NCBI GenBank assembly: GCA_947034885.2
Contig: OZ019759.1
Span: 9,426,501-9,490,500 of the forward strand
From: Thuidium tamariscinum
Lineage: Eukaryota; Streptophyta; Bryopsida; Hypnales; Thuidiaceae
Direction of reading: 5' to 3'
DNA length: 64,000 bases
A program made the position numbers and the translations under genes. The notes under the pieces were generated by a model. That model ran no database searches, was not told the DNA's origin, and saw only the letters and a program-made list of their open reading frames with translations. Shown here one piece after another: positions 23,376-52,980 of this stretch; the stretch's first letter is position 1; the number at the start of each line of letters is the position of its first letter.

Positions 23376-23384
23376 ATTGCTTGC
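23376..23384. repeat. MULE target-site duplication ATTGCTTGC, left copy
   Basis: Nine bases directly before the left TIR are identical to 45,228-45,236. The next base differs (T here, G there), so the duplication is 9 bp, or 10 bp with one mismatch. Confidence 0.88.
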
Positions 23385-23385
23385 T

Positions 23386-26350
23386 AGGGTTGACGAATTG
23401 CCACGTCCGGAGCAAAATCACGTCCAAAATCTAGATGTCTAGACGTCCAGATGCAGTGGACGCAGTGGCTACTGGACGGCGAACGCCGTCCGGTGGTCGC
23501 GTAGACGAGTAGTTGGGCGGACGGACGAGCAAACGGCCGAGATGGAGAAGATGGGTGGACGGGCAAACAAACTAAGAATGTGTTATCTGAGACTCTGAGT
23601 GTCCGTGGGATTTTAAAATTATATTACAAGTCCTTTGTGACTAACCACACTACTACAATAATCTCTAAAATCAAGGTTAGTATCATTACTGATGCATGGC
23701 ACATTGGGAAAAGAATCCTTGTTACTAACCACACTAAGCCCCAAAATTGGAGTTTGTACGGTTAGTAACATATTCATATTGCGAAAAAACAATCTTTTGT
23801 GACAAAGCACACTAATCCCAAAAATTGAGGTTAGTAATATTACTAATGCATGGTACATTAGGAAAAAAATCCTTTGTCACTAAGCACACTAAGCCCCAAA
23901 GTTGAAGTTAGTATCGTTAGTGACATATTCATATTAAGAAAAAAAATCCTTTGTCAATAATTGCACTAATCCAATTTGGAACCGAAATCCATTAAGTTTC
24001 GGTCCTAAATCCTAAAAAAAGGAAAAGTGTGTTGAGGTTTACTTGAAGTCTATTTCAAGTACACATCCATACACTTTTACTTTCTTTATTGAACATACTA
24101 TTTTTAAAATTTCTTTTGCTTTTAATTCAATGAGAGGATTAAAAATGCACTTGAGGTGTGCTTGTGTGGCACTTTTATATTTTTCATTGAACACATTATT
24201 TTTAAATTTTATTTTACTTTACATTCAATGAGAAGATTAAAAATGTGCTTAAGGTGCGCTTGAGGTCTACTTCAAGTACACTGGAAGCACACTTTTACTT
24301 TTTTTTTTAAAACATGATTTTGAATATTCATTTTGCTTCAAATTGAATGAGAGGATTCAAAATGTGCTTAAGGTGTGCTTTAGATCTATCTCAAGTACAC
24401 CTCAAATACACATGAAGTTTGACTACTTGCTTATATTTGACAACTCGTTTGATTGACTGCTCGGCCGTCCATCCGTTTGAACTTTGCCTTGTAAAATGTA
24501 GTTGGTTTGTGAGTTCAACCGCGTTGACGTTGTGTGGCGGACAGGTGGCACTCCACTTTATCTTGTCCGTCCGATTGTCCAATCGTCTGCCCGTCCGCTC
24601 CATCTCGACCGTCCGCCCGCCCATCCGCGTGCTCGCCCAACCGCCACTTCACCCGTCTGCCCGTCCGCCACTTCGCCCGTCCTCCCGCTCGCCAAAACGC
24701 TTGACCCTTTGTTGAGTTTGTTTACTATGTATTCAATGTTTTAGAATTTTGAAAGTCCTCGAGTGCAAGAACATTGGATTTTGAAAAAGACCAGTTCACT
24801 TCCATTCTTGAACTGACAGCTATTGAATGGTGGAAGTATCCAATGTAGTATGAATGCACAAAATGGTAATTTAAGTTATTTCTCTACACATTTACATTCT
24901 AAACCCTAAACCTTAAACCCTAAACCCTATCCAAACTTCAAATTGTATATTACTTACCAAAAACATTGGTGCAATGCAATCCTTTTTTTTGGGCGATATG
25001 GTGCCAGAAAGCACCATTTCAAAAAAAAATCGTTTTTTCGCCAAAAAAGTATCCAAAAAAGTAACCTTTTTTCGCTAGAAATTTACCATTTTTATGAAAA
25101 CCGTGGATGAAATTGCCAAATTTAGATGATAAAGTGTATGAATATAACTATAAAGTATTTTTTAGTGCAAAAGTTGGATGAATGTAGAAATACAATGCTT
25201 CACCAAATTTTAAGTAATCGCCATGTTGGCACTTTCTCAAAAAGCAAAAAAAAAGGGCTGGTGCAATGTGTACAATATATTTGATTTTCAATTATTTTTA
25301 AATGTCATTATTAAAATGTAGTACATATATAGACCTCACTAACTCATTTATTTTGTTTTTTGAATGTTTTGTGGGATTTAGGGCATTAATTTTTGTTTGG
25401 CTTTGAAGTATTCTACATTACTACTACCTATACAAAAGTGAAACATTCAAATATGATTTAAAGATTGAAGTGTTTCTTTTGGTTTTGTACTTATATTGTA
25501 AAATGCATTGATAATTCAAAACACCAAAGTATACATCCTACAAGAAAGAAAGAAATGATTTCTATTGTATCATTTTATTATTCTATTAGAAGATGTTGTT
25601 GAAAACAATTGAAACACTTTAATGTAATTTAATATGATATACTATAATAGGTCAAGGTTAAATATTACATTCATATAACAAAATATAAATGAAGTTTTTA
25701 TTGTATATTCTTTCACCTATATGTACATCGTAAGTTATAAGCCATCAACAATATATTGCATTTCAAAAATATTGGTGTTTAGAGAGTAAAAAAGGAGATT
25801 GACCTTCAAATGTAATAACTAATGTTAATCATGTACAATAATCAATCAATATTTATTAGACCTCATACATATACATTTGTAATGTCTTTCTACATTAAAA
25901 ACGATGTCATGATATTATTCTATTATAATATGGAATTGTCAAATATATATTTAGTAATTTGAAAGATTTTTCTAAATGTAGGTTTAGGCCTTAGGCCTAA
26001 GGGTGCATGCCTAATTGAAAGAATCAATATTGTTGTACTATAATTGTACAAGCTATTTCATTAGATGTTAGATGAGATCATGAGATGGTGTTGTATTAGA
26101 GAAAATGAAAAATAGGGTATGACCTATGTCCTCATAAGTTCCTAAAGTATTACAAAAGTCAAATATAGAATTTGTGTAGTATTAATGTTTGAAGGACCAT
26201 TTGTCCCTTGGAGAGACACCTTGGATTTTGAGAAGGTACCAACAGGGTTGCTAGCGTGTGAGCCTGGGAGCGTGAGCCTGGGAGCGGGAACTTTTTTTTT
26301 CCAAAAAAGTGGATGAGGATCTGTAACCGTGGATTTACCTATGACCGTGG
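23386..26350 (+). repeat. Left terminal inverted repeat of the giant MULE
   Basis: The outer part is AGGGTTGA plus GACG/CGTCC-rich DNA. Next come degenerate tandem units of roughly 125 bp built around TTAGTGTGGTTAGTGACAAA and CATGCATTAGTAAT (23,620-23,990), then repeats around TTCAAGTACAC (24,040-24,420), then a GC-rich block of CGTCCGCC-like words (24,560-24,700), then long AT-rich DNA. The match to the right arm is near-exact to the GGTACC at about 26,240 and continues weakly to about 26,350 (ACCTATGACCGTGG here, its inverse near 40,800). Open frames within it are mirrored in the other arm and follow the repeats, so I do not count them as genes. Confidence 0.88.
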
Positions 26351-26943: not shown

Positions 26944-29900
26944 CTAATTTGCAGTAGACTCTGTCGCAGAATCCATGTCACTAGAAGACTCTGAAGTCTC
27001 TCTATCCTCAGACGCTGATCCATCTATGAATTGTAAGACATTTAGAGCGTAAGAAGGTTTGCGTTTTTTGGATTTAGAAGTACCAAACTCAGCAAACGCT
27101 GATGCTAGTTGCTTTGCATAGATTGGAAGATCGAACGGCTTCTCCGGGCTTGAGATGAGTCTTTGTCTCTTCTTCACTTCGTCCTCCATGATTACTCCGT
27201 CGTTGCTACATATGCACCAAATGCATTGTTAGATAAATGAAACATTCCAACTACAATGAAAATAGAAAATGGATATATAAAAAAACTTGCTTACAGGGTT
27301 TAGGGCGCCGAACGAACTTCCGAGGCACAATCACAACAGTATCTTGATCTTGTGATAAAACCACAGGTGCTGCCTCTGAACTTGGAGCCACGATCACTGG
27401 AGCATCTACCTTCTTCATTGGCAAGAGGATGTGCTGAAAAATCCTCTTGTCTTCTTCCAACGCAACAATATGACGCCCCGTTGCACGGCATGCAGTAATA
27501 GATGCACCTGCCACAAACCAAAAGGTGAATCATTTTTGTAATCATTGACTACATAAAGTAGAGATGGTTTCAAGACATTCAAGAAATCAAAACTCACCTG
27601 TAGATGCAGTACAATCAAGTACTATGTCTCCTTCATCAGTGGTGCCTTCGATGATGAACTGAATCAAGCGGGCGTCCTTCTCTCGAGCTCCACGCCAAGC
27701 CATTCGATCCATGTCATTCATCAACATGGTGTCCTCCATTGTGTAATTCATGAGCAGGTCATCGCGACGGAGGTCTACCTTGGCTTTCAGCATGGTTTGA
27801 GAACGCTTGAACTGGAAATTTGATTTCCCTCGATCTCCTAGATGCTTGACAAACAGTGTAATGCCAAACTTCAAAGTCTGCAAGCACAAGCAAAATTGAC
27901 ATGAGAATAAGTAACAAAAAAAGTAACTAATTCATCTTCTAATGAATATTTTCAAACATTAAGAAAGTAATACCGTTTGATCTGGTTGAACTGCTGATGT
28001 AAGGTGCATGCAATTCATGCCCATGCACTCTTTCATCTTCCTGATGTTTGGGTACTCTTGAAGAAGTCCTGCAATGGTTTCCAAGGAGTCTTGGCCCCAA
28101 GAATGGAACACAACAATGCAGCCGTCTTCCTGCAAATGCTTGTCTGCAAATGCAAAAGCTTGAAAGATGGTAAAATACTCCTTATCTGCGTTCCAATAAG
28201 GAATGTGCTTGGAGCCCCCAATGTTTGGTACAGGCAAGTTCTCCTGGCAGTCAAATATCATAAGATCAACTCCTGGATGCCGATTCACAACCCCACCATA
28301 AACTCTTGCTTTTCCTACCACCATCTACAAGTACATTTCTTCAATATATGAGAATTTGATGAATAGAAGTACAAAATAATACTCTTTTAGTGATCCAATT
28401 GAACTGCACAATACAGTGACAATGACAAAGATTACCTTCCGTAGAAACTCCATGACCTCGGTGTAACAATTTGATCCCCGTACACCTTCATTGTCTACCA
28501 CTTCTCCAATGGAGACACCCAATAGTAACTCCTCGGAGGTGACATCATCATCATCACCAAGGGCAATGACTTGGGTCCCTTGAGTGATGACTTCTTCCGT
28601 GAAGTCAGGAAGTACCGCCTTCCTCTTCAATCCTCCCTGAGATGCACCTTGCATCTGAGAACCTTCATCCAATGTTGATGAGGTTGGAGCGCCACTGCCA
28701 TCTACTACTTTCTTCCCTTTTGCCCGTTCCTTCTCCTCGTCCTTCTTCTCCCTCTCCTTCTCCTTCTCTTCTAACTTTGCAAGATGCTCGGCTTCTTTCT
28801 TCTCCTTGGTCTCCAGAGCCAATTGAATGCGAGCAACTTTTCTTCTGTCATTAGTCTCCCTCCTTGCAATGGCCTTTTGCCTCTGCTTCTCAGTGAGGCC
28901 AACAAACTCATCAACCTCCATGGTCACGGTGCCTATTCCCTCCAAAGAATTCCGCAGCTCTACCTCAGAAGGATGTGTATAAGAAATAGGGCAATCAAGG
29001 TACCACCCCCCACCACTTAGATGAGCCGTGGTGAATGTGCGAATTTGATTCGCCGTGAACATGCAATTCGATGAGTTGCGGTCAAGAAATCCAAATAGAA
29101 ATGGAGGAAGGTCTGCTTTCTCAATGGCACCTTTTGCTTCTAGCTCATACTTGAAGTACCTGCCATGAGCAATAATGTGGTAAGTAATAGAAGCTTGGAA
29201 GACAAACAATAATATAGATACAATCCACAAGCAAAACAAAAAGAAACCACATTTGAACCTAAAAAAAAATCTCATTTAAAAAGTCATTATTTCAATTCCA
29301 GTGATGGAAATTGGGGGGTCCCAGAGGTACCTCTTGGACATCCGGCGGATCCGACGGATGTCCAAGAGGTACCTCTAGGACCCCCAAAATATTGAACATC
29401 ACGGAAAAAAACAACTAAGTAGCACAAAAAAGTTGAAATTCAGTGAGTTGTGCAATAAGTAGGAATGTAGACAGTTAATTATAAGGAAGAACTCACCGAA
29501 AGAGAACCCTACGCAGAGCATGATTGGCCCCCTCAAAAGTGTGGAAGTTGTCACTTTTCTTGAAGTAGTTAGCTCCTCTCAACTGTGCCAAGAAACCTTG
29601 ATTCCAAGTCTTCCTCCTCCATCCTTCCAAATAGTCCACTAACGTCTTGGGCTTTGAGGGAAGCTTCATGTTGATAGGAATGTTGTCTTCGCTTACCACC
29701 GCCTCAAAGTATTCGAGTGCAGCATCCTCAATCTGTTGTAATTGATAAACAAATTATAAACCATTCTAAGCAAACAATACTGGTTCAATTTCAATACTCA
29801 AACATTTATAAAAATGCCTTTCTCAAATCGAATTTCAAGAATGCAGCATGTGATGATAAGAAGTGCTTACCCCAGCATACCAGACACATCGGTTTAGAAA

Positions 29901-32900
29901 TGGACCAAGTAGTAATTCAGATACTGGTTTGGGTGGGAAACGCCTTAACTCCCGTGAAAGGATGGAAGAATTCCACCACTTCAAGAACTTGATTTTATGA
30001 GCCGGAGTCGTATTGCATGTTGCAACCATCTGCAACTTCTCCAAGGTCATCTCAGGAATCTCATTTGAGATCCAATGCTTCTCCACCTACACCAGAGAAA
30101 AAAAATTAGATTTGTATGGGATTTTGAAGTGACATTTCTCATTTTATTATGAAATGGAGAAATTACTTACTTCTTCCAAAAATCCAGGCGTATTAGTTGG
30201 ATTTGCCACCGCTAACAATTTGGACATCTTCGAGTTCAACTTTCCAGTCTTCTCTTTTGCCCCATCTCTCATTGCTTGTGCAAGACCTTCCGCAGTGTTC
30301 TTGCCCTCTGGAGTGACCTCATTGTATTTGCGAGCAGCTGCGTCAGCGGCTTGAGATATTTCTTGCTGAGAAAACCAAGTTCCCAAATGACTTGAAATCA
30401 GTACCTCAAAAATTAATAGAAAACATTAGTCAAATGAAAATTAAGAAACATGGGAAAGGAATATCTCACCCGGAAAATAAAGGAAGTGAAGACCTCTTGT
30501 GGCATAGAATACCAAGTCTTCTTGGTTTTCGGTAGTCCACACCACTTCAACTCTGACAGCCTCAACATCTCATTGAACCGTTCAATAGGTAACAACCCAT
30601 ACTTCTGAACCTGGTATATGTTGTGAATCATATTCGTCTTCACATGAGAGCCTTCCGTTGATCTGTCATACAAAACAAGTTTCTCAATGTCGTGTTCATC
30701 ATGAATCCATATTTTGAGATTTCTACTAAATGATGAATTCAAAGCACAGAAATTGAGGGTTTAGGATATTCCATACTTGTTAATGTCATGCATGACATGC
30801 ATGGTAAGCTCGATTCTGCCCTTTGTCTCCAAGACAATTGAATCCACACAATAATACCATTTCCTGTCATTGGAGTGCCTCCTGGAAATGTAGTTCATCC
30901 ATGAGATGAGACGGTGGTTACCGTCACAAACATAGAACTTCAGGTTCCTTAAGAACCTCAACTCCGGCTTCGACTCCAAATGGGCAATGAATGTACTGTT
31001 TTTTTCTTTCCAAAATGGATCCCACTTGTCCATCTCTTCTTCTGTGAACTCGGAGCTCTCCCCAGCTTCGTTTGTTGTAGTCACATAAAAAACTGCTGCA
31101 CCCTCATAGTAACCAACTGCAAACTCGTGCTCGAGCAATTCCAAATCAGAAGAAAAGGTAGGTCTCACCATCGGCATAGACACCATTCGACACAAAGGAA
31201 TTTGAAGCCGGAATAAGTGATCCGGCTTCATTCTTAGGCTTGCTATTGTGTTCACTGAATCCCCTTTTTGGAACTGTCGCAAATCATCCTCCAACAAGTC
31301 CTTGTCCTCTTCTGCTATGAAGTCATACAACACATCTTGCTCCAACACATCTTGTCCCTCCTTAGAATCCTTGGGTACACTTGAAATCTCTTGTTGAATT
31401 GTCTCTTCCGTGTTTGGAGTCTCAAGAATAGTGTCTTCTTGAGAAAGGTTGACTGGTGACACATCCATCTGCAAAATCAAAAAAGAAATCAATGTCTACA
31501 AATCTAAATATGAGGAGTCAAAATCTAAGTCAATTCAAGATCCAATGGAAACCTATATTCTTTGAAAGTACACATAAAGAAAAATTTAGTAATTTATAAA
31601 ATTTCAATAGGGTTGTATACAAAATATGTATGGTTTAAAATAAAGCTAAATCCACTTAGTCTATCTCTATATCCCCTTCTGAGTCTGAGCTCAAGTGAAT
31701 GAACACTGGCTCTTGTGGACCTATAGGACCACTACAAGCACACATACAAAACTCTTGTAGTGGTGGACCATCTACTGTGATAGAGGTTCGTGACTCTGAG
31801 CTATACTCAGTGTCAGAGCTCTCTAGAGACGTGAATCTTCCTCTCTTATACAGAATCTCTAATTGCCTTGCAAAATGTCTTTTACTGCGAGCCTTGATGT
31901 CACTCACTCAACTCGTCACTGAACTCTCAAAGGCATCTGCTGCTTGCGATGCTGCATCCATGATGTCATCAAAACTTACCAAGTCTTCACGTGGAGCTTG
32001 TGTGTCCTCTTCGGAGTCACTTGAAACATCAACATTTCGATTCACTCGTGCAGGGAATTGGGATGGACCCGCTCCATGAGTCACCAAAGCACTGTCAACT
32101 GGTGCTAAAGGTGAAGAGGCCCCTTCTTCACGTCCTTCCTGTTTTCAAAATCACAGTCCCAAAAAAATTAATTTACTTAGCAAATACATAAAGATAGAGC
32201 AAATTGGAAGTCATTCATGGACACACTAGAAAGTATAGAAGCCCATTACTGAGAGATAGATGATCTCAGGGTTTTATAGCACTAAAGACAAGACTCCCAT
32301 CATTCCAAAGACAAGACTCCCATCATCTTGGACTTTGATTCATTCTACATTCTTTATGTGCACCATGAAATTTAGTCTAGTTAGCCATATACTTTGGAAC
32401 AATAACAATAAAAATAAATGAAAGACTTCAAGCGAAGGCATTTTTAATCAATAACATTCAAAATTCATTAACATACTACAATTCCGAAATCTATAAAATC
32501 GAAAATTTTTAGTAAATGAAGAATCTTTGAATTCCGCTGATTCGTTGAAATCTTTGTAAAATTAACCAAAATTTCATTTCTTCAAAAAAAAATATATATT
32601 TTATTAAATTTTGGAATCTGGTACTTGAGACCGTGAGGTCCCCAATATCGGGGCCCGGTGACCGTCGGATACTAGGCCACGATCTTGGGGACCTCACGGT
32701 CTCCAGTATCAGACGCCTGTAAAGGCTTAACTAAATTAAAAAAAAAAATTTCATTTTTTTTTTCTTAAAAAATATCTAAAAAATACAGCATATATATATA
32801 TTTCAAAATATTAATTTCGATTTAAAATTAATGAAAAATAAATAAAAGTATTTGAGTTATCCATTTAAATCATTGTAAAATGAAGAAAAACAAAATTTAA

Positions 32901-33816
32901 AAAATTTAAAAAAATTTAAAAAAAAATTATAGCCGTCAGATGATGGAGATCATGGGGTCCCCATGATCGTGGCCTGGTGATCGGCAGATCCGACGGTCAC
33001 CAGGCCATGATCATGGGGACCCCAGGATCACCATCATCTGACGGCTGGAGATCCTTCTCCCGCATGCAGTACATGAAAAACAGAGTTCAATACTCTTAAC
33101 GTATCTAGATTTTCAGATCTATAGATCATAACCGAACTTCCAAAATCCCAATTTCAAACTTACAAATGATCGTGATAAAAAGCTCTGCAACTCGCATTTC
33201 ACGTCCAAAACTTTTGTAAATATGAGCTAGTTATCAAAATGAGATTGTGCATCGACAAAACTCCTGCCTGCCTGAGATCATCATCGAAATCCTAGCATGA
33301 CCTGGTTTCATGAATTAAATTTTGAAAAAAGAAACAAAAAATCCTCGCAGGGTTGCATTCTTCGGGGGTCGAGACTTTGGCAGTCCGAGGTAGCTCAGAT
33401 CCGAGCTACCTTGGACTGCCGAAGTCTGGACCCCCGAAGTAAGCAACCCTGCGGGGATTTTTTTAAAATTCTTGATGACAGAACAACGACAACAATCCCT
33501 GAACCTGGTTCGGGGTGATCCCGTGTACATCGACGCAACTACTGGATTCTCTAGTCCAACCTGTTGAGGAAGTCTGGGACTTTGCAACCAAAAACTGAAG
33601 AACTCCGAACAGAAAACTAAAGACGCCGACCTTGTATCCTATCGTAGGAAGACCAGGAAATCAGAGGATTCCTTCGGCATGACCGAGCACTTGCGCAGGT
33701 GAGAAACAAAATGAATTGAGTTTAACCTTGGAGCTCTTCCGTAGTTTCCTTCTTGCAGCTGGAGCTGGTGGCGTCGATGAGCCCTCCCGCGCCCGGCTTC
33801 GAGTAGTTCGCGTCAT
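26944..33816 (-). CDS. ParB/sulfiredoxin-like plus amino-methyltransferase-like protein, MULE cargo, 12 exons
   Basis: Predicted exons (minus strand): 33,816-33,727; 32,138-31,980; 31,468-30,777; 30,662-30,470; 30,404-30,171; 30,086-29,871; 29,732-29,497; 29,159-28,436; 28,324-27,974; 27,877-27,598; 27,507-27,295; 27,194-26,944. All introns are GT-AG and phases agree, giving 3,639 nt or 1,212 residues with no stop. Residues 1-85 are basic then acidic. About 170-330 hold a ParB/Srx-like segment with DGNHRLISW (265-273). About 600-780 is a long charged coiled coil (EKKEAEHLAKLEEKEKE). About 850-1,130 resembles beta-order N4/N6 amino-methyltransferases: VDLMIFDCQEN takes the place of the DPPY motif and comes before DIVLDCTASTG (motif I), followed by GRHIVALEEDKRIF (motif II). 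The tail is acidic and Ser-rich. The altered DPPY and F-x-G-x-G residues leave catalysis in doubt. It could modify or bind DNA; the function is inferred. The last acceptor (GGAG|TA) is the weakest junction. Confidence 0.72.
29301..29402. repeat. Hairpin 1, GATCCGACGG family, in a cargo-gene intron
   Basis: The arm GGGGGGTCCCAGAGGTACC...GGACATCCG pairs with CGGATGTCC...GGTACCTCTAGGACCCCC around a short loop holding CGGATCCGA. The outer bases GTGATG/CATCAC extend the stem. It lies between exons 7 and 8 of the ParB-like/methyltransferase-like gene. Confidence 0.8.
32618..32714. repeat. Hairpin 2, GATCCGACGG family, in cargo-gene intron 1
   Basis: GAGACCGTGAGGTCCCCAA pairs with TTGGGGACCTCACGGTCTC, with TCTGGTACT/AGTATCAGA continuing the stem outside. 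The centre carries CCGTCGGAT, the reverse complement of the ATCCGACGG core. Confidence 0.8.
32931..33045. repeat. Hairpin 3, GATCCGACGG family, in cargo-gene intron 1
   Basis: About 50-bp arms start AGCCGTCAGATGATGG and end CCATCATCTGACGGCT, nearly perfectly paired, around a centre holding CAGATCCGACGG. Confidence 0.85.
33341..33464. repeat. Hairpin 4, related GATCCGA core, in cargo-gene intron 1
   Basis: AATCCTCGCAGGGTTGC pairs with GCAACCCTGCGGGGATT, and GGTAGCTC pairs with GAGCTACC around the loop AGATCC. The whole stem is about 50 bp with a few mismatches. Confidence 0.82.
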
Positions 33817-36056: not shown

Positions 36057-39000
36057 ATGGCTTACATTAGAGTAGATGGCCGTGAAGTTCCTTTGGTTTT
36101 TCCAGTAGTAGATGGTAAACCCGCTAGAGTGGCCTCCCACCTTCTCCATGTTCGATTCAAATTTATAGAGACCTCCATATATGTTGAAGAGGAAAAAATG
36201 CTAGATTCGGGTGAAGTCCAGGAGTCCATCCCTGTTGTTGTGTCCGTAGAGGACGGAATACGTTGTTGGTACCTCGGTCCAGGAAACTATAGAGCGTATG
36301 GGCTTCCACTGTCTATGTTCAGTGCGTCCTTGGAAATCCTTAGTCGTCAGTCAGATAATTCTACAGTGAATATGCCATGTACCAAATCGGGCATTGCACT
36401 TAGTCCACCTCCGGAAGCTTCGCCAATTCTTGAGAAGCATAAAGCACTTCGTGCGGTGAAAGTAGAGAGATTAGATCCAATCATTGAGTTGTCTTTAGAT
36501 TCTGATGGAGAAACTCCTCATTCTGGTTTTGAGAATCCTGCTAGTTCTGTTCTGCTTGCACCATGCAAGATGGAAACAATTGAGTCACTATCCGCAATCC
36601 CTTCAAGTAGTCCTTCAAAATCGGCATCGACAGTCCCCCATTTCAATCCACATATAGCGAGCATAGAGAGCATAGTGGATTGTTTGAAGAGACTAGGTAC
36701 CATGCGTCGCTCTCGGAATGAGTTGTCAATAATGGATCTGGGCAGTTTCAAGCACATGCAAGTTCCATTTCTTCCCGCCGTCTTTGATGGAGATGTCATC
36801 TTCGAATTGCCACCATGCCGCTCATCTTCTTCTTCATCAGGGGCCCGCAATTTGGAGGGGATGGATAAGCGATACGACAGACATCCGTGGTGTAAAGTGA
36901 TGACTACAAACATTCACAACTCCGACAACCTGAAATTCCGTAAGTCATTCTGTGCTGGACATCTTTCTTGTGAGAATGCAAATTGTGATTATCTGAAGAG
37001 AACTTCAAAGAAAAATGAGACAGAGTGGACTGGATATACTATATTCCCTTTTACTCCGGGAGAGTGTACACCTATAGACTCAACTCTAGTATGCAAGGTT
37101 TGCAAAACTTCACCTATATGTCTTAGCGCATGCCCAGCTAGGATATATTACGTATGCAGTAATAAGCCAGAAGTGAGTAGAGCAGCTATTCACTTTGGAG
37201 AGCACAGGTACCCTGTTGCTAAGGGCATGTACAGAGATTCTACTGAAAAGATTTGCGGACTTATAGCGGAGCAAGTGGCAAAGACACCCTTGGCTACAAA
37301 CTCTGCTATTGCTCTTTCAGCTAGTAAAGACTTCTTAACAAACTACTTGTTTCACAATGGAGTGGGCAAGAAGGAGATGTTGAAGGAGGAGGAAATGGAA
37401 GAGGTTATGGATCGCTTCCAGTACCTGAGTAGTCCAAGTATCCGCAACGTTATCTCTTCTTTCCGTTCAAACAATCGTGGAGGAGTAATTGACAACATTA
37501 TGACCATGAAGAAAGAGTCGAAGTTCGAATTCATACACGACAGCGTCTTTCCAGGACAAGGGAAAGAAAAGGTCTACATTTTTAAAATGCTTACAGAGGG
37601 GCCTGGGAGTGGAGTAGACCTTGTGAAGCGCATGCAAGGAGGAAGTGATCTGCAGAATGCTTGGTTGATGTTTGACCACGTGAAGCGCGTGAAGGAGTGG
37701 ACCACAATGGCTTGCCACGTGTATGATACGGAGTACAAGAAGGTGATGACCGTAGCTATTTGTGATATGCAATCTGAAGACACCGAGGTTCAAGTACAAT
37801 TTTGGCGAAGTTTAAACGCGGTAATGCTTCAACATGGGGTGCCTAATCCGAATTTCAAGGGATTTATGGCAGATAGTGCCATGGCCAATTGGAATGCAGT
37901 TCGCATTGTGTATGGTAGCGGTTCTGCCAATGTTGCAATGGAGAATCGTGAAAGAACATGTTTGTTGCATTGGAGTACCTCTCTCCATAGACATACACAG
38001 AAGTACATCAAAGAGGCATTCCAACAACAACATATTTCGTTATGCAAGCAATACAAAGATTCGAAGAATATGGACCAAGCAGAGACACGTTACTTGGCAA
38101 TACGTTCATAGTGGCTATCATCAGGAGCTGCAACTGAAGATGCACTTCATGACTTAGATCATTGGCTGGCTTTTTGGCATTTTCGATATCGGCAGTGGGG
38201 AGGCTTCATGGACATGGTGCGTTGAATTTTTGATGTCAAGTTATGTAATTCTTATAGATGAAATGAAAAATTCTCTAATAGAAAGTTCAGTTTAATGTAC
38301 GATAAGAATGAAGTGGTAGTGAATACATCCAATTTTTTTGGGGTTTTTTTTCAGATTTTTTCAATTTTTCCTTCCCATATCTGAAAACGAGGGGGTCCAA
38401 GTAATATTGTAATTACATCACTTGGATCCGACGGATATATTAATGGTTTTAAGTGGACCCCCCAAATTTGAGATTTACATTAAGAATTTCTGGATGAAAT
38501 GAAAAAATTGAAAGGCATTTAATCTCTTGGACTAACAATCTGGATTAATGATATATTCTTCATTATGTAGTTTTCCATATATTAACCCTATTGATGAAGT
38601 CATTGCTAGTCGTATACAATGTTAGAATGTATATTGAATACATACAAGTAGATACATGCAAAGAAGCTTGATTTTTTTGAAGTATACAAGACTAACTTCT
38701 TTTGAGTTCTCTGGCTTTCCTAGAAATTGAGTTTGGAGGAGATGCTGGACTTACCATCATGTAACCTATCTGAAACGGTACATAACAAGTGGCTGCAAAT
38801 GTCGGGAAATCGAGGGAACAACTTATTTGATGCAACATGTGATGATAGTATCCGTGCTTAGATGCAAATGACAAATTACAGAGCATACTTGAAAGGCCAT
38901 GCATCGGGCTCAAGTCCCTCAAAAGGAGAGTTGAAGCTCAGAGCTGCTAAGAGGAGTGGAGATCCCAAAAAAATTGCAGATGCGTTGAATGCTTTGCCGA

Positions 39001-40112
39001 GATCAGAAGGTGTGGGAACAAGAATACCGCACTTAGAAGGAGAAGAAATATTTGGGAGCATGAAGAGGAAGTTAGATGTCCCCATTGGTGATGCAGGTGA
39101 TTCACATAGACCGGACAAAATGAATTTCTCTCAACCTCGTGTTAGAACAAGGTCTACGACAACTTCTTCACCTTCTTTGCAGGACAAGACTAAAGAATCT
39201 GAGGCGAATACTTCAACATATGTTCCAATTGCATTTGAGAGTGATTGCGACACATCCAAATGGCATATTGCAAGAATCAACCACAAATCAAATGCAAGAT
39301 GTCAAGCTCAACAGAAGACCTCAAACATCAAGTGCACAGCTAAAATTTCAAGGGGAAAGAAGGGAACTCTAGCGCCAACCTACCGCGGAAAAAAAGAAGA
39401 ATATGGTAGTAAACGAGAAGTGATAGTTGACTTTTGGTTTTGCTGGGATGACATTGAACGTTGTGTGAAGGGTTCTAAACGGAAGTGGGTTATTGATTGG
39501 CCCGAGATACCAGAGGTTTGGCCTATTCTCACTGGAACAAACCTCAATCGTGAAGAGACATTGTTGTTGCAGCATGCTGGATTTCACCTACAAGCACGGC
39601 CAGTATTGTCACCACGTCGATTGTTCACCATGTCAAAGATTTTCACCACTGCTTTGTATGACCACCCTTCACCGAAGAACCCTGACGCATATCCAACAGT
39701 GAGGAATAACCGTACCATTCGAAGGGTTGCAAATGCACCAACCACCGAACAACGGAATAAGTGGGAAAGTGCGGGCAATGTCAGAGGCCAAATTCTAGAG
39801 GTGACTTTGCTCCCTTTTCCAGGACTTGGTGCAATTGTAGTACTCGAGACAGGGTCAGATTCTAACAGGAATGCATATTGAGTTACAATAGGAATGTTTC
39901 CAACGTGTACATGTCCAGACTTTGTGAATATGGCTGTTTCAGCTATTGGTGGTCAACAACAATACGTGAACTACAAGCACTTGTACTATTTGTACAAGTA
40001 CTTTTGCAAGATGGATGTCCACGAAGACAAATTCATTCATGCACCAAGTTGTAGCTTCAATGAATTGAAGGTACTTCTAGTTCGAGCAGGAATTATTGCA
40101 ATTCCAGAATAG
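36057..40112 (+). pseudogene. MULE transposase with GCM/WRKY-like zinc domain and SWIM finger, two exons, three premature stops
   Basis: Exon 1 is 36,057-38,216 and exon 2 is 38,724-40,112 (GT-AG, phase 0), together about 1,182 codons. Residues about 285-400 hold a Cys/His zinc domain (FCAGHLSCENANCDYL, CKVCKTSPICLSACPAR, HFGEHRYPV) like the WRKY-GCM1 finger of some MULEs. The RNase-H-like core follows: VAICDMQSED (about 565), GFMADSAMANW (about 601) and CLLHW (about 634), matching the MULE D...D...CxxH pattern. WLAFWHFRYRQWGGF ends exon 1. Exon 2 carries LSETVHNKWLQMSG and, near residue 1,113, CTCPDF...NYKHLYYLY, a SWIM finger (CxC...CxH) whose third Cys is Tyr. In-frame stops are at 38,109 (TAG), 38,859 (TAG) and 39,879 (TGA); the frame is otherwise kept. 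The protein would cut the TIRs; this copy should be inactive. Confidence 0.85.
38388..38464. repeat. Hairpin 5, weaker, GGATCCGACGG core, in the MULE transposase intron
   Basis: GGGGGTCCA pairs with TGGACCCCC at the base. The inner stem is degenerate but contains CTTGGATCCGACGGATAT. It lies between the two transposase exons (intron 38,217-38,723). Confidence 0.55.
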
Positions 40113-40985: not shown

Positions 40986-41913
40986 GAAGGTACCAATAGT
41001 CTCATTTTTTAATTTTTTGTCATGATATTCAAAAACTCTTTTTGAAGATAGAAAAGTTGATTGTCTTTATAGGAATAAATTTTTTCCTCAATTGATGGGC
41101 AAGAATACAAAGTATGTCTACAAACAAAAGTTCTTCTCAAAATTAGGGAGAGTGGACAACAAAAAGGAATTTAAAAAAACATCATTTTTATTTTTATTTT
41201 TATTTATTTTTTCTCGCACATTAAATTTTTGTCTATATAGAAAGCTTATATTCATTTTATTTGGACAAGTGATGTAAAAGTTATGGACAATCTTCTTTAT
41301 TAAGCATTATAAAGTACGGGTGAGATTCAAAGAGAAAAAGTTTAAAGAAAAAAATTAATTGTGATTTTCAAAAACATAACTAATTAGAACTATTAGGTTT
41401 GGTAGGATAGGAAAATCTAAATTATTTAACATATTTAACATGGAATAAGAGCTTATTAATATGAAATAGGTGAGATTTTTCTAGCAAAAAAAATAAACTA
41501 TGTAGAATTTCATTTCTTGAAAAAAATCTAGAAAATTGCATTTACAAATGACTCATACAAATGTGGTTTTTTTCCAAAAACATACTTACAATGTCCAATA
41601 AAGAAGATTGTCCATAACTTTTACATCACTTGTCCAAATAAAATGAATATAAGCTTTCTATATAGACAAAAAATTTAATGTGCGAGAAAAAATAAATAAA
41701 AATAAAAATAAAAATGATGGTATTTTAAATTCCTTTTTGTTGTCCACTCTCCCTAATTTTGAGAAGAACTTTTGTTTGTAGACATACTTTGTATTCTTGC
41801 CCATCAATTGAGGAAAAAATTTATTCCTATAAAGACAATCAACTTTTCTATCTTCAAAAAGAGTTTCTAAATATCATGACAAAAAATTAAAAAATGAGAC
41901 TATTGGTACCTTC
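40986..41913. repeat. Fold-back (inverted duplication) inside the right MULE TIR
   Basis: Arms 40,986-41,301 and 41,597-41,913 are about 316 bp and nearly perfect inverse copies, both ending GAAGGTACCAATAG outward, around a 295-bp loop. The left MULE arm lacks this sequence. The shared boundary word means it may have arisen by snap-back template switching or as a fold-back/MITE-like insertion. It carries no gene. Confidence 0.85.
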
Positions 41914-44430
41914 TCAAAATCCAAGGTGTCTCTCCAAGGGACAAATGGTCCTTCAAACATTAATACTACACAAATTCTATATTTGACTTTTGTAATACTT
42001 TAGGAACTTATGAGGACATAGGTCATACCCTATTTTTCATTTTCTCTAATACAACACCATCTCATGATCTCATCTAACATCTAATGAAATAGCTTGTACA
42101 ATTATAGTACAACAATATTGATTCTTTCAATTAGGCATGCACCCTTAGGCCTAAGGCCTAAACCTACATTTAGAAAAATCTTTCAAATTACTAAATATAT
42201 ATTTGACAATTCCATATTATAATAGAATAATATCATGACATCGTTTTTAATGTAGAAAGACATTACAAATGTATATGTATGAGGTCTAATAAATATTGAT
42301 TGATTATTGTACATGATTAACATTAGTTATTACATTTGAAGGTCAATCTCCTTTTTTACTCTCTAAACACCAATATTTTTGAAATGCAATATATTGTTGA
42401 TGGCTTATAACTTACGATGTACATATAGGTGAAAGAATATACAATAAAAACTTCATTTATATTTTGTTATATGAATGTAATATTTAACCTTGACCTATTA
42501 TAGTATATCATATTAAATTACATTAAAGTGTTTCAATTGTTTTCAACAACATCTTCTAATAGAATAATAAAATGATACAATAGAAATCATTTCTTTCTTT
42601 CTTGTAGGATGTATACTTTGGTGTTTTGAATTATCAATGCATTTTACAATATAAGTACAAAACCAAAAGAAACACTTCAATCTTTAAATCATATTTGAAT
42701 GTTTCACTTTTGTATAGGTAGTAGTAATGTAGAATACTTCAAAGCCAAACAAAAATTAATGCCCTAAATCCCACAAAACATTCAAAAAACAAAATAAATG
42801 AGTTAGTGAGGTCTATATATGTACTACATTTTAATAATGACATTTAAAAATAATTGAAAATCAAATATATTGTACACATTGCACCAGCCCTTTTTTTTTG
42901 CTTTTTGAGAAAGTGCCAACATGGCGATTACTTAAAATTTGGTGAAGCATTGTATTTCTACATTCATCCAACTTTTGCACTAAAAAATACTTTATAGTTA
43001 TATTCATACACTTTATCATCTAAATTTGGCAATTTCATCCACGGTTTTCATAAAAATGGTAAATTTCTAGCGAAAAAAGGTTACTTTTTTGGATACTTTT
43101 TTGGCGAAAAAACGATTTTTTTTGAAATGGTGCTTTCTGGCACCATATCGCCCAAAAAAAAGGATTGCATTGCACCAATGTTTTTGGTAAGTAATATACA
43201 ATTTGAAGTTTGGATAGGGTTTAGGGTTTAAGGTTTAGGGTTTAGAATGTAAATATGTAGAGAAATAACTTAAATTACCATTTTGTGCATTCATACTACA
43301 TTGGATACTTCCACCATTCAATAGCTGTCAGTTCAAGAATGGAAGTGAACTGGTCTTTCTCAAAATCCAATGTTCTTGCACTCGAGGACTTTCAAAATTC
43401 TAAAACATTGAATACATAGTAAACGAACTCAACAAAGGGTCAAGCGTTTTGGCGAGCGGGCGGACGGGCGAAGTGGCAGACGGGCAGACGGGTGAAGTGG
43501 CGGGCGAGCGGGCGTGCGAACGCGCGGGCGGACGATCGAGATGGAGCGGACGGGCAGACGATTGGACAATCGGACGGACAAGATAAAGTGGAGTGCCACC
43601 TGTCCGCCACACAACGTCAACGCGGTTGAACTCACAAACCAACTACATTTTACAAGGCAAAGTTCAAACGGATGGACGGCCGAGCAGTCAATCAAACGAG
43701 CTGTCAAATATAAGCAAGTAGTCAAACTTCATGTGTATTTGAGGTGTACTTGAGATAGATCTAAAGCACACCTTAAGCACATTTTGAATCCTCTCATTCA
43801 ATTTGAAGCAAAATGAATATTCAAAATCATGTTTTAAAAAAAAAAGTAAAAGTGTGCTTCCAGTGTACTTGAAGTAGACCTCAAGCGCACCTTAAGCACA
43901 TTTTTAATCTTCTCATTGAATGTAAAGTAAAATAAAATTTAAAAATAATGTGTTCAATGAAAAATATAAAAGTGCCACACAAGCACACCTCAAGTGCATT
44001 TTTAATCCTCTCATTGAATTAAAAGCAAAAGAAATTTTAAAAATAGTATGTTCAATAAAGAAAGTAAAAGTGTATGGATGTGTACTTGAAATAGACTTCA
44101 AGTAAACCTCAACACACTTTTCCTTTTTTTAGGATTTAGGACCGAAACTTAATGGGTTTCGGTTCCAAATTGGATTAGTGCAATTAGTGACAAAGGATTT
44201 TTTTTCCCACTGTGCCATGTATTAGTAATAGTATTAACCTTGATTCTTGGGATTAGTGTGTTTTGTCACAAAGGATTGTTTTTCTTCAATATGAATATGT
44301 TACTAACCATATTAACTCGAATTTCGGGGCTTAGTGTGGTTAGTGACAAAGGATTTTTTTTCCTAGTGTGCCATGCATCAGTAATGATACTGACCTTGAT
44401 TTTAGAGATTACTGTGGTTAGTTACAAAGG

Positions 44431-45037
44431 AAATTGGATCTTTTCCACTATTTATTTTAGATTATGTGATTCTCTTCTAAGTGCTACACTTGGGGCCTGA
44501 AATTAATCTTGAATTTGTTTCAAGATCAACAAATTCAATCAATATACAAATTTTTTTTGCTGTACACTTGATGAAATCCTTGTCTATTTGTACATCTATC
44601 CATCTTTTGAATTGAAAACATGTTTCAATCTTATCTATACAAATTTTCATCTAAATCTCGTGCATTCATCTATATTTGGAAGGAAAATGAAAAATTTATT
44701 GCATAAGAAATTAAGAAGGTTCCTTTGATATGGCGAGTAGTAGCCTATCTTTTAGAAATTGTAAACTCTGGCACCATCATTCCCAAAGAAAAAATCGGGG
44801 TGAACTAGACCCCTCACTCTACTACTTGAAGTCTCCAACTCTCTAAATAAGTCTAGGGATGTATGTAAAACAAAAGCCCCTTCTTTCGTGCTTATCAAAT
44901 TACCGCACCGCACTACCTATCTAATTTGGGGCCTCTCATTGCAAATCCGAATTCAGAATTTCTAACTTAAATTATTTACAATAATAAAAAATTTTAGCAT
45001 CTTCGTGAATGGCCAAGCAAGGATCACAACCAAATAA
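44431..45037. mobile_element. 607-bp insertion in the right MULE TIR, unclassified
   Basis: The left arm is continuous where the right arm is split by 607 bp. The pentamer AAAGG flanks the insert (44,426-44,430 and 45,038-45,042), consistent with a 5-bp target duplication. The insert begins AAATTGGATC and ends CCAAATAA, and has no gene and no clear terminal repeat. It could be a small non-autonomous DNA element. Confidence 0.5.
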
Positions 45038-45227
45038 AAAGGACTTGTAATATAATTTTAAAATCCCACGCATACTCGGAGTCTTGGACAACACATTCTT
45101 AATCCATCCGCCCGTTCGCTCGCCCGCTTATCCCTTCGACCACTGGATGTACAAAACTACAAATGTCAAATGACGTCCGAGGACCCCCGGACGCTGCCGT
45201 GGGACGTCCGGGCGTCCTATCAACCCT

Positions 45228-45236
45228 ATTGCTTGC
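45228..45236. repeat. MULE target-site duplication ATTGCTTGC, right copy
   Basis: Nine bases directly after the right TIR are identical to the left copy. Confidence 0.88.
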
Positions 45237-47932
45237 GATCGTGAGGGCGAAGGTTGTGCAACTTCTGAAGATGGAGGTGTCTGTAATGCGGCAACCAGGT
45301 TACGGTTTAGAGGCGGCAGTTTAGTTTGATGAAGTTTTAGCTCATTTGCGCCTGTATGCTCCAAAGTTGGTGTAGCGGCGTAGTACTGTAGGGTCTTCGG
45401 CTTCAACTATCAGCATGTTCTCTTGCGGTAAGCGGTTTCAATTTCACTTGTTTCTTCAATTTTGCTGACTGGGTGTGCATGCAATTGGCTTGTAAATCGG
45501 AGTGCTGTGGGTGAAGAGTTCATCTCCGATGAATTTCTATGTACATTAGGTCTTTTGCATGCTCTGTTTTTGAAAGCGTGGTGATTGATTTCCTTGCATG
45601 ATGACTTGTTCTATGTCCTCATGTGCTTTACAATTCTCTTGAGCCGCTATGGAGTCCGGGCCTTCATTGCTTTTGGTTTAGTTTGGTGTATGTTCATTTT
45701 AGAGTTGTTGTAAATGTTTTGTGAATGATTCTTGTGAATGTTATTCTTGTTTTACAGTTGCTAATTTTTTGTTAGACCCGATTTCCTAGAGGTTCATCAC
45801 GACTCTACTGAAGCAATTCTATTCATATAAGTCTCTCGTTGTGAAGTTTTCTTATCTGTTCCTTGCTTTCTTATAAAAGACTTATAAATTCAATATGCAA
45901 TTCATAGAATATAGTCAGGGTTTTCTAAGGGAGTTTTGAATGCATGAATATCCATGGAAATTAAGAGTTTCTATTTTGGGACTGACAAGGCAGCATTGAA
46001 AACCTATGATTCACACTAGGGTTTAGGGTTTAGGGTCCAAGTGAAAGAAACTGGCACCCTAAATCTCCTAGTACAATTAGGGTTTAGGATTTAGGCCAAA
46101 TCAATTCCCTGGTGATGGTCGAAATTAGGATTTTGGGTTTTCAACACATCTAAACCACCCCAAATGAACGATTTTGAGCACATATTTTATTAGTTTTTGA
46201 CAGCCAGTATTGGATGTTATCCTCAAATCAAGGATAACCACCCAGTAGTCTTTCAGAAGTTGTTATGTAAGACCTAAATTTGGGTTATGTGGTTTAAAAA
46301 TTAAATAACCCTCCTCAAACTAATGTTTCTTACCACATAATTTCTTAATCTAGACCATCTAAAAATGGAGGCTATCCTCGAGTCTAGGATAACCACCAAG
46401 TAGTCATTGAATTCTCTACAGACACACCATTCAATCCATCATAATGTTCATCACTCGATATTCATTCTCATATTCCATAGAGTTATCTTCATATCGATGA
46501 TAGTGGATAACCTCTGCTTATGCAGCGTACACTTATCCGGTGGTTGATAAATGAGGTCTTTAACCAATACTTATCCAGATTAGCCCCCAAATCAAAATGC
46601 TATCGATGGTATCGACTTTAACCAAGTACTCATTCACACTCACGAACGAGTTATCATTGAGTCAATGATAATAATATTAACCCTCCAGTCCTTGACAATC
46701 ACCGCCGAGTCATCTTGAAATGATTATTAATAGTACTTTGAAATTAATATACGTTCCTTATCTTTGATCCAAAAAAAACCATTTCGACAGTAAGAAACTC
46801 AAACTATGAAACACAGGATCTAATACAGAAGTCAAGAATTATTAAACTCAAAGGTGATGAGACCATGTTCGGTGTATGAAGTCTACAGACTATTGTTTCA
46901 TAGAGAAATAAATCGTCCGTATTAATGATTTGAATAACACATTGTTAAACAAGTAACATTAGAACACGTAGTAAATGAATATAATCAAGTCAACAAAACA
47001 ATGACTAATACTCGTTTGTCTATATTTTTGCAGCTCATTACGATGGGAAGTGAAGACAACTACAATTACTCAAAGACCTCCATTCACCTTTAGCCATTTA
47101 TAAATCCCATGAACGGTGGGCCTTTCATTTCTGAAATGGAAGAAAGCTATGGGTAGCTTTGGAAGTTCAAAGACCACGTAGGGTTGAAGTACACTAGACC
47201 CCATACACTTTTGGCAAAACCAGAATGTACATAGTTCAAAAACAGTACTCAAAAGTACTAAAATGTATTAATCAAATGAACACAACAAGCGTGCCATCTC
47301 CCGATCTTGATCGTGCGGTTTTGGGTTGACCGATCTAGATCAACCAGTAAGCAACCAGTCAACTGGCAGGTGTTTTAATGTGGCTCATCTGGATTATACC
47401 AGATTAGGAGGGGACTTAGTGGGCGGGTAGTGGACAGCAGTCACCTGGTCAGGTGTGTTAATTTGATGATCTGGATCATACCAGATTAGAAGTGGATTTA
47501 GTGAGGCGTAGTGGGGGCGTAGTGGACAGACCATGTTGCTGCCGGGATTCCTGGCTTCAATACTATTTAAATAAGGTTGAGGCTATTTGAATCACCGAAT
47601 TTGAATTAAAGTTGAGGATCCCATGACATTAGTTCCCGCCCGGCATGGACACTTTCATTGTAACTCTAAACCATCCGTAATATGGAATTGCATAATAGTT
47701 TTGAAGGCAACCCTTATGGAAATTCCGGTATTAGTTGTTTTTTGGATAAATAATGGACGAAGAACTATTTTAAACACCCATCTAGTATAAAAAGAAGGCA
47801 TAATTAGAAGAAAAAATTAGTGATAATGCTTCTTAAGATTCTTTTGCATGTATATATTTCTTATGAATTGCCAAATTTTATAGAACAAAATATTATTGAC
47901 TAGAATATGACTTCAATTAGTTTGTCTTTTAA
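45237..47932. other. MULE right flank, no confident gene
   Basis: 45,240-45,430 has balanced composition and a possible donor (GCGGTAAGC), so it may be a 5' exon. TTTAGGG-type runs occur at 46,018-46,095. Near 46,205-46,400 the hairpin words TATCCT...AGGATAACCACC occur twice. A minus-strand frame at 47,070-47,252 is not recognised. 47,355-47,545 holds two degenerate copies of a roughly 100-bp unit containing ATACCAGATTAG. Confidence 0.4.
47355..47545. repeat. Two-copy degenerate tandem repeat, about 100 bp
   Basis: Two adjacent copies carry GGCAGGTGTTTTAAT / GGTCAGGTGTGTTAAT, then ATCTGGATxATACCAGATTAG and a GTAGTGGACAG tail. No function evident. Confidence 0.5.
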
Positions 47933-48803
47933 GTGTTAGATTATATAAATCTAACACACCAACCATTCACCAATTTTTTATTATTTTTACGTGTTAGATC
48001 ATATCGATCTAACACACGGTCAACCATTCACGAATTCCAAATTTTTTGTGTGTGTTAGATCATATCAATCTAACACACAAAAACCATTCACCAATTATAC
48101 ATTTTTTTTTCGTGTTAGATCATATTGATCTAACACACCAACTATTCTCCAATTATACTTTTTTTTTAAAGTGTTAGATTATATTCATCTAACACACCAA
48201 CCATTCACCAATTTTTTATTATTTTTATGTGTTAGATTATATTCATCTAACACACCAACCATTCACCAATTTTTTATAATTTTTACATGTTAGATCATAT
48301 CAAACTAACACATGGTCAACCATGATTCACGAATTCCAAATTTTTTGTGTGTGTTAGATCATATCGATCTAACACACACAAACCATTCACCAATTATACA
48401 TTTTTTTTTGTGTTAGATCATATTGATCTAACACACCAATTATTCTCCAATTCTAATTTTATTTAAGTGTTTCATCATATGAATCTAACACATGAACCTT
48501 TCATCAATTCCAATTTTTTTTTCGTGTGAGATCATGTCAAACTAACACACGGTCAACCATTCACGAATTCCAAATTTTTTTTTTGTGTTAGATCATATCG
48601 ATCTAACACACACAAACCATTCACCAATTATACATTTTTTTTCGTATTAGATCATATTGATCTAACAGACCAATTATTCTTAATTCTAATTTTATTTAAG
48701 TATTTCATCATATGAATTTAACACATGAACCTTTCATCAATTCCAATTTTTTTTTAATGTGGGAGATCATATCAGTCTAACATACGAACCATTTCCCAAT
48801 TCC
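47933..48803. repeat. Array of about 15 palindromic minisatellite units with higher-order order
   Basis: Each 55-65-bp unit contains a palindrome of the form GTGTTAGAT-CATATCG-ATCTAACAC, followed by ACCATTCACCAATT-like sequence and a T-run. Unit types follow one another in a repeated order: one with GGTCAACC...CGAATTCC, one with ACAAACC...TTATAC, one with ATTATTCT, one with GAACCTTTCATC. This gives a higher-order period of about four units. A telomere-type TTTAGGG patch follows at about 48,808. Confidence 0.88.
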
Positions 48804-52351: not shown

Positions 52352-52980
52352 AGTGGCCTGGTTCTTATTAGAATGTTTTTAAAGCATTCTTAGTTTCGTA
52401 TTCATAGAGTACAAGGATTTCGATACTTTATGAATGTGTAGTGTTCTATTAAGTTAGTGGCTTAGTTCGTATTAGAATGCACTTAGAGTATTATTAGTTT
52501 TGTATTCACAGAGTCCTAGGATTTGGATACTTTCTAAACGTGTATTTTTGTATTGCGTTTGTGGCCTGGTTTGGATTAGAAAGTACTTAGAGTTTTATGA
52601 GTTTCCTAGTCACAGAGTAGTCGGATTTTGATACTTTTCCAATGTGTAGTATTGTATTGAGTTTGTATCCTAGTTCATATTGGAATGCACTTAGAGTATT
52701 ATTAGTTCTGTATTCACAGAGTACTCGGATTTGGATACTTTCTAAACGTGTAGTATTGTATTGAGTTAGTAGCCTGGTTCGTATTGGAATGCACTTAGAG
52801 TATTATTAGTTCTGTATTCATAGAGTACTCGAATTTGGATACTTTCTAAACGTGTAGTATTGTATTGAGTTAGTAGCCTGGTTCGTATTGGAATGCACTT
52901 AGAGTATTATTAGTTTTGTATTCACAGAGTACTAGAATTTCGATACTCTATAAATGTGTATTATTGTATTGAGTTTGTAT
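52352..52980. repeat. Tandem minisatellite, about 104-bp unit, about 6 copies, in a probable intron
   Basis: Units contain AGCCTGGTTCGTATTGGAAT, then GCACTTAGAGTATTATTAGT, then CACAGAGTACTCGGATTTGG and ACTTTCTAAACGTGTAG. Two neighbouring copies begin at 52,771 and 52,875, a spacing of 104 bp. The central copies are nearly identical and the outer ones degenerate. It lies between the donor at 52,047 and the next coding segment at 53,531. Confidence 0.85.

What the first reader, a model, noticed from the sequence alone, without database searches (positions are those of the whole stretch)
26944..33816. Intact 12-exon ParB-like plus methyltransferase-like gene carried by the MULE
Eleven introns with correct phase give about 1,212 uninterrupted codons, while the transposase of the same element is broken. 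A ParB/Srx-like domain with a DNA amino-methyltransferase-like domain recalls phage and plasmid proteins, and is unexpected as plant transposon cargo. It could mark, bind or protect element DNA. This is the best candidate here for an undescribed system.
Basis: partly seen in the sequence, partly recalled or inferred. Interest (0 to 1): 0.92.

Follow-up and report, generated by a model that had tools for sequence, protein, structure and literature searches.

The report
Transposon-borne ParB-like/methyltransferase-like accessory gene
A large plant-type jumping gene carries, next to its own broken transposase, a long many-exon gene for a protein with a DNA-methylase-derived end and a possible ParB-like start; a similar transposon passenger is already reported in algae, and here the methylase end seems to lack its usual catalytic signatures.

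Summary
The gene is real: on the minus strand, 11 of 12 proposed exons score best as coding in the proposed frame, and one 1,237-aa frame can be spliced. Two junctions are soft: the strong exon-2 donor follows an in-frame TGA, so the safe gene is E3-E12 (1,134 aa, own ATG), and exon 12 needs a GC donor. The C-terminus is a diverged N4/N6 DNA-methyltransferase domain (27.5 bits alone, cut-off 26.7; 22.2 in the whole protein) with no [DNST]PP[YFW] or FxGxG. ParB rests on a DGNHR motif and sub-threshold matches: unproven. The element is complete: 23385-45228, 8-bp TSD, inner repeats 99.2% identical. Its transposase has three in-frame stops, but 3 versus 0 stops is not significant (P=0.25). The idea is not new: the 21.5-kb Ectocarpus Sola1-1 carries a 1,104-aa ParB-like plus N4/N6-MTase gene opposite its transposase, with green and red algal precedents (PMC12477816). 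New member of a known kind; probably a DNA-binding accessory protein with doubtful catalysis.

The parts
23377..23384 (.). target-site duplication, left (TTGCTTGC)
   Evidence: on the + strand this 8-mer occurs 3 times in the window, two of them exactly at the element tips
23385..26245 (+). left terminal inverted repeat, tip TAGGGTTGA, with 78-, 98- and 119-bp tandem repeats inside
   Evidence: inner 2,279 aligned columns 99.2% identical to the right arm; middle 88.2%; outermost part 46.3% in that alignment
41900..45228 (-). right terminal inverted repeat, tip TCAACCCTA
45229..45236 (.). target-site duplication, right (TTGCTTGC)
36057..40112 (+). transposase-like gene, two exons (36057-38216 and 38724-40112), in-frame stops at codons 685, 766, 1106, SWIM-like C-terminus (below cut-off)
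33727..33816 (-). E1 (uncertain; may belong to a separate upstream frame)
31920..32138 (-). E2 (coding signal continues to 31659 past an in-frame TGA at 31908-31910)
30777..31468 (-). E3, starts with ATG; holds DGNHR, the ParB/Srx-like motif (residue 285 of the 1,237-aa model)
30470..30662 (-). E4
30171..30404 (-). E5
29871..30086 (-). E6
29497..29732 (-). E7
28436..29159 (-). E8, includes a Lys/Glu-rich linker
27974..28324 (-). E9, methyltransferase-like domain, region where motif IV is expected (DCQE or HIPYW instead of [DNS]PP[YFW])
27598..27877 (-). E10, methyltransferase-like domain up to motif I
27291..27507 (-). E11, methyltransferase-like domain after motif I (DCTASTG spans the E10/E11 joint); GC donor
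26944..27205 (-). E12, acidic C-terminus, stop TAG
29314..29385 (.). intronic palindrome (intron 7), core ATCCGACGG
32617..32713 (.). intronic palindrome (intron 1), core ATCCGACGG on the minus strand
32931..33046 (.). intronic palindrome (intron 1), core ATCCGACGG
33336..33463 (.). intronic palindrome (intron 1), core ATCCGAGC
38392..38461 (.). possible decayed palindrome in the transposase intron: core ATCCGACGG and GGGGTCC ends kept, but it folds no better than shuffles

Best explanation
An accessory gene of a 21.8-kb terminal-inverted-repeat transposon, transcribed divergently from the transposase. The protein (about 1,134 aa, E3-E12) is most likely a nuclear DNA-binding factor that acts on its own element: a ParB-like N-terminal module would recognise or load on repeated sites of the element, and a C-terminal domain descended from a prokaryotic N4/N6 DNA methylase would bind DNA or SAM, with catalysis weakened or lost. 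The expected effect is to keep the element expressed or transposition-competent, in the manner of the VANC anti-silencing proteins of VANDAL elements. Shown here: the element, the gene structure, the methylase ancestry of the C-terminus, and the altered motifs. Inferred: ParB function, DNA binding, the target sites, and any effect on silencing.
For: Element complete with 8-bp TSD and 9-bp mirror-image tips. Eleven of 12 exons score as coding in frame. N6_N4_Mtase on E9-E11; best PDB relatives DpnA (E=0.0043) and CcrM (E=0.024); PHROG methyltransferases down to 6.3e-8, one of them (phrog_498, 2.1e-5) spanning residues 47-232 of the 248-aa piece; NCBIfam CcrM 3.5e-5, far below its cut-off; an unverified faecal phage record 46.6% identical over 58 aa; hhalign probability 96% over 58 columns. 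[quoted passage not shown] Precedent for a transposon protein binding repeated motifs of its own element and causing methylation loss: VANC (PMC5735166, passages seen). No [DNST]PP[YFW] and no FxGxG in the 1,237 aa, while of five prokaryotic relatives inspected 5 have DPP[YF] and 4 have FxGxG, the fifth AMGSG.
Against: No expression data, no other copy, no dN/dS. ParB is not established by any threshold-passing match. Motif IV placement is ambiguous (DCQE or HIPYW), and one apparently normal phage relative also departs from FxGxG (AMGSG), so loss of catalysis is likely but not certain. The VANC comparison is by analogy; no VANC homology was tested.
Confidence: 0.45

Rival explanations
1. An active N6-adenine or N4-cytosine DNA methylase that is targeted by the ParB-like domain and marks the element's own DNA, as proposed for the algal proteins.
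For: Domain ancestry; proposal in PMC12477816; phage ParB-N6_N4 MTase fusions are frequent (PMC12704722, passages seen).
Against: No [DNST]PP[YFW] and no FxGxG in 1,237 aa; motif I reads DCTASTG. Most profile matches cover the motif-I side only; phrog_498 (47-232) is the exception.
Confidence: 0.2
2. Decaying cargo: the gene was carried by the element but is no longer selected, like the transposase beside it.
For: Transposase has three stops; an in-frame TGA sits at the strong exon-2 donor and two non-standard junctions are needed for the full model; both catalytic motifs are altered; 3 versus 0 stops is not a significant difference.
Against: E3-E12 has no internal stop or frameshift; the model frame is best of six in every exon from E2 to E12.
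Confidence: 0.25
3. A host gene captured by the element (Pack-MULE-like), with a host function unrelated to transposition.
For: Plant elements do capture genes (Pack-MULE, recalled; mentioned in the passages).
Against: The same domain pair on the opposite strand of a transposon is reported in algae, which speaks for a recurrent transposon gene.
Confidence: 0.1

Closest known systems
ParB-like plus N4/N6-MTase accessory protein of Sola1-1_Ec32 (Ectocarpus) and the green and red algal relatives mentioned there (PMC12477816, citing Iyer 2011 and Petroll 2025)
   Same: Giant TIR transposon of about 21.5 kb; protein of about 1,100 aa; methylase-derived domain with claimed ParB-like domain; gene on the strand opposite the transposase
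   Different: Transposon type differs (8-bp TSD and SWIM-like transposase here, Sola-1 there); motifs degenerate here (theirs could not be inspected); no direct sequence comparison was possible
VANC anti-silencing proteins of VANDAL elements (Arabidopsis, PMC5735166, passages; that VANDALs are MULEs is recalled)
   Same: Accessory gene of a plant transposon; element carries tandem repeats and repeated short motifs in introns and non-coding parts
   Different: No methylase or ParB domain is mentioned for VANC in the passages seen; homology not tested; no function shown here
Phage ParB-CTPase fold fused to N6_N4 methyltransferase (PMC12704722, passages)
   Different: ParB half not confirmed here; motifs lost; intron-rich eukaryotic gene in a DNA transposon
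DNA methylases DpnA and CcrM
   Same: Motif I region aligns
   Different: FxGxG reads TASTG and [DNS]PP[YFW] is absent

Membership tests
Transposon ParB-MTase accessory proteins (algal class) | Gene lies inside a DNA transposon with TIRs and TSD | tested here: met
Transposon ParB-MTase accessory proteins (algal class) | Strand opposite to the transposase | tested here: met
Transposon ParB-MTase accessory proteins (algal class) | N4/N6 DNA methyltransferase domain | tested here: met
   domain piece alone 27.5 bits, cut-off 26.7 (54 residues aligned); whole protein 22.2, below it
Transposon ParB-MTase accessory proteins (algal class) | ParB-like domain | tested here: inconclusive
   DGNHR motif; DUF1015 E=0.016, 14.6 bits against 25.8; AF2 pLDDT 33.7
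Transposon ParB-MTase accessory proteins (algal class) | Sequence homology to the algal proteins | not testable with these tools
   no eukaryotic collection held; (viral and prokaryotic collections) found no relatives
Catalytic N6/N4 DNA methyltransferase | Motif IV [DNS]PP[YFW] | tested here: not met
   none in 1,237 aa; 5 of 5 prokaryotic relatives inspected have it
Catalytic N6/N4 DNA methyltransferase | Motif I FxGxG | tested here: not met
   reads TASTG; 4 of 5 prokaryotic relatives have FxGxG, the fifth AMGSG
ParB/Srx fold | Profile or structural match over threshold | tested here: inconclusive
Mutator-like element (MULE) | 8- to 11-bp TSD and long TIRs | tested here: met
   (the 8-11 bp range is recalled; 8-bp TSDs also occur in other superfamilies)
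Mutator-like element (MULE) | MULE transposase profile | tested here: inconclusive
   no Pfam transposase match; SWIM 10.8 bits against 19.6
VANC-like anti-silencing protein | Binds its own element and causes loss of DNA methylation | not testable with these tools
   no methylome or binding data

The most novel reading that the evidence does not exclude
A self-contained plant-transposon targeting system: the ParB-like protein loads at palindromic sites inside its own element. The hairpins centred on ATCCGACGG, which in this window lie only in introns of the element's two genes, would be its parS-like sites, and the methylase domain, now without catalytic motifs, would be a DNA- or SAM-sensing clamp that keeps the element from being silenced.
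Probability: 0.06. Interest if true: 0.85.

Novelty: new member of a known kind. Interest (0 to 1): 0.5.

Why it matters
The cases that I saw in print are in brown, green and red algae. A copy in an element with plant-type neighbours and a different transposon type suggests that this accessory gene has been picked up or kept by several transposon superfamilies. If the protein works without methylase catalysis, the published idea that these proteins methylate their own element needs testing; the altered motifs give a direct test.

Tried and rejected
ParB by structure: E3 folded alone gave pLDDT 33.7, so no fold search was run. ParB by sequence: no ParB match in PDB, phages, PHROGs or NCBIfam. 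A ParB reference profile could not be obtained: none of the records fetched and scanned held a ParB fusion (Pfam scan of 3 proteins; PF02195 and DUF1015 in 0 of 3 records, where the controls rang in 10 and 3 of 14 genomes); a further phage locus was fetched and not used. Relatives of the gene: none in viral contigs (transposase) or genome contigs; these single-query scans reach close relatives only. No second copy in the window (tblastn). No host genome is held, so copies, dN/dS and species could not be examined; 'plant' is inferred from the neighbouring CACTA and SET genes and splice style, not shown.

The PPY site was placed in two ways: DCQE by eye, supported only by a 1.5-bit DpnA alignment of the following residues; HIPYW by MAFFT, with hhalign global placing the site a few residues further on. 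None is canonical, so the conclusion does not depend on the choice. The 16-sequence set was pre-selected for the PPY motif and is not used as a count; its 11-row profile contains one probable wrong-frame row (L018). The LPPF in E8 (residues 644-647) was rejected as motif IV because it lies about 430 residues from motif I. A first transposase reading was in the wrong frame and was corrected; the Fisher test used 1,185 codons where the corrected model has 1,182.

Alternative codes: TAG as Gln was considered for the transposase stops and rejected, since TGA also interrupts the frame and both genes end in TAG. Papers: 10 of 10 searches used. PMC12477816 was seen as outline, passages and part 1 of section 5; PMC12704722 and PMC5735166 as passages. 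Petroll 2025, Iyer 2016, Iyer 2011 and Iyer 2014 were not held and are known only through citation or recall.

Full report
Observation. On the minus strand between 33816 and 26944 twelve exons can be joined into one open frame of 1,237 aa. A codon score trained on 3,317 codons from other ORFs of the window (the transposase among them) puts the model frame first of six for 11 of 12 exons; E1 (90 nt) is the exception. The eleven introns score between -89.8 and +1.2 in their best frame. So the gene is more than a chance chain of ORFs. Two joints are uncertain. The strong donor after exon 2 follows an in-frame TGA, and coding signal goes on beyond it for 83 codons in the same frame; fusion to exon 3 needs a weak donor. 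Exon 3 begins with ATG directly after a good acceptor, so the safe gene is E3-E12, 1,134 aa. Exon 12 is reached through a GC-AG intron; the adjacent GT donor would end the protein at 1,153 aa.

Element. The gene lies in a TIR element from 23385 to 45228 (21,844 bp). Both ends read TAGGGTTGA inward and are flanked by TTGCTTGC. The inner 2,279 aligned columns of the arms are 99.2% identical, the middle part 88.2%, and the outermost 250 bp only 46.3% in that alignment. The arms hold 78-, 98- and 119-bp tandem repeats. The transposase-like gene runs the other way (36057-40112, two exons). It has stops at codons 685, 766 and 1106 and no frameshift. No Pfam transposase family matched it; its last piece resembles a SWIM finger below cut-off. 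The MULE label is therefore plausible, not proven.

Broken versus intact. Three stops in 1,185 codons against none in 1,134 gives Fisher P=0.25, and 0.35 if the exon-2 TGA is counted.

Methyltransferase end. The piece from residue 869 to 1116 matches Pfam N6_N4_Mtase at 27.5 bits when scanned alone (cut-off 26.7; 54 residues aligned) but 22.2 bits within the whole protein. PDB, NCBIfam and PHROG searches point the same way. A faecal phage record encodes a methylase 46.6% identical over 58 aa, and hhalign gives 96% probability over the same stretch. Most of these matches cover motif I and its surroundings; phrog_498 spans 47-232 of the piece and NCBIfam CcrM 146-235. The whole protein has no [DNST]PP[YFW] and no FxGxG. 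Motif I reads DCTASTG; the motif IV position reads DCQE or HIPYW depending on alignment. Of five prokaryotic relatives inspected, 5 carry DPP[YF] and 4 carry FxGxG, the fifth having AMGSG. Catalysis is doubtful, not excluded.

ParB-like end. E3 contains DGNHR in the setting FYVCDGNHRLISWM. It resembles the conserved arginine box of ParB/Srx proteins (recalled), and the only profile match is DUF1015, below cut-off (E=0.038, 0.016). DUF1015 (printed DU1015) is named among fusion partners of the ParB-CTPase fold in PMC12704722. Other searches gave no ParB match and the structure model was unusable. This part is a lead, not a result.

Prior art. [quoted passage not shown] PMC12704722 reports phage ParB-N6_N4 fusions. 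The present gene matches this class in size, element size, orientation and methylase ancestry; direct homology could not be tested because no eukaryotic collection is held. In my ten literature searches (CC-licensed PMC only) I saw no report for a land plant; four older or related papers were not held, so absence is not claimed.

Mechanism. The most economical reading is a self-acting DNA-binding accessory protein, with VANC of VANDAL elements as functional analogue (PMC5735166: VANC binds a short motif that occurs as tandem repeats in introns and upstream regions of its element and causes methylation loss). Rivals are an active methylase, decaying cargo and a captured host gene.

Intronic palindromes. 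A scan of the window found four near-perfect palindromes, and all four lie in introns 1 and 7 of this gene. They fold at -40 to -65.6 kcal/mol as DNA, z -8.6 to -16.6. ATCCGACGG occurs four times in 64 kb (0.13 expected; 0 of 100 shuffles reach four): three at centres of these palindromes and one in a similar stretch of the transposase intron, which folds no better than shuffles (z -0.94, 33 of 200 as good). They may be foldback insertions that share ancestry; that they are binding sites is speculation.

Noticed in passing
29314-29385, 32617-32713, 32931-33046, 33336-33463, 38392-38461: Family of 70-130 bp hairpins with unlike arms but a shared centre (ATCCGACGG in four of five) and GGGGTCC in at least one arm of four of five; all lie in introns of the element's two genes; the fifth is decayed. 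Origin unknown.
   Followed up: partly
31659-31907, minus: Coding-like frame of 83 codons continuing exon 2 past an in-frame TGA to TAA; possibly a separate small acidic protein encoded upstream of the ParB-MT gene; no Pfam match.
   Followed up: partly
40986-41913: Inverted repeat with arms of about 245 bp (98%) abutting the inner end of the right TIR; looks like a nested foldback or MITE.
   Followed up: no
44440-45038: About 0.6 kb present in the right arm and absent from the left arm of the TIR.
   Followed up: no
9746-11374, minus: CACTA-type transposase (Transposase_21, E 1.1e-41).
   Followed up: no
55341-56045, plus: Pre-SET and SET domain gene, likely a histone methyltransferase.
   Followed up: no
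63099-63998, minus: DUF7869 protein (E 4.5e-40), frame runs to the window end.
   Followed up: no
47927-48802 and 52352-52979: Tandem arrays with 58-bp and 104-bp units.
   Followed up: no
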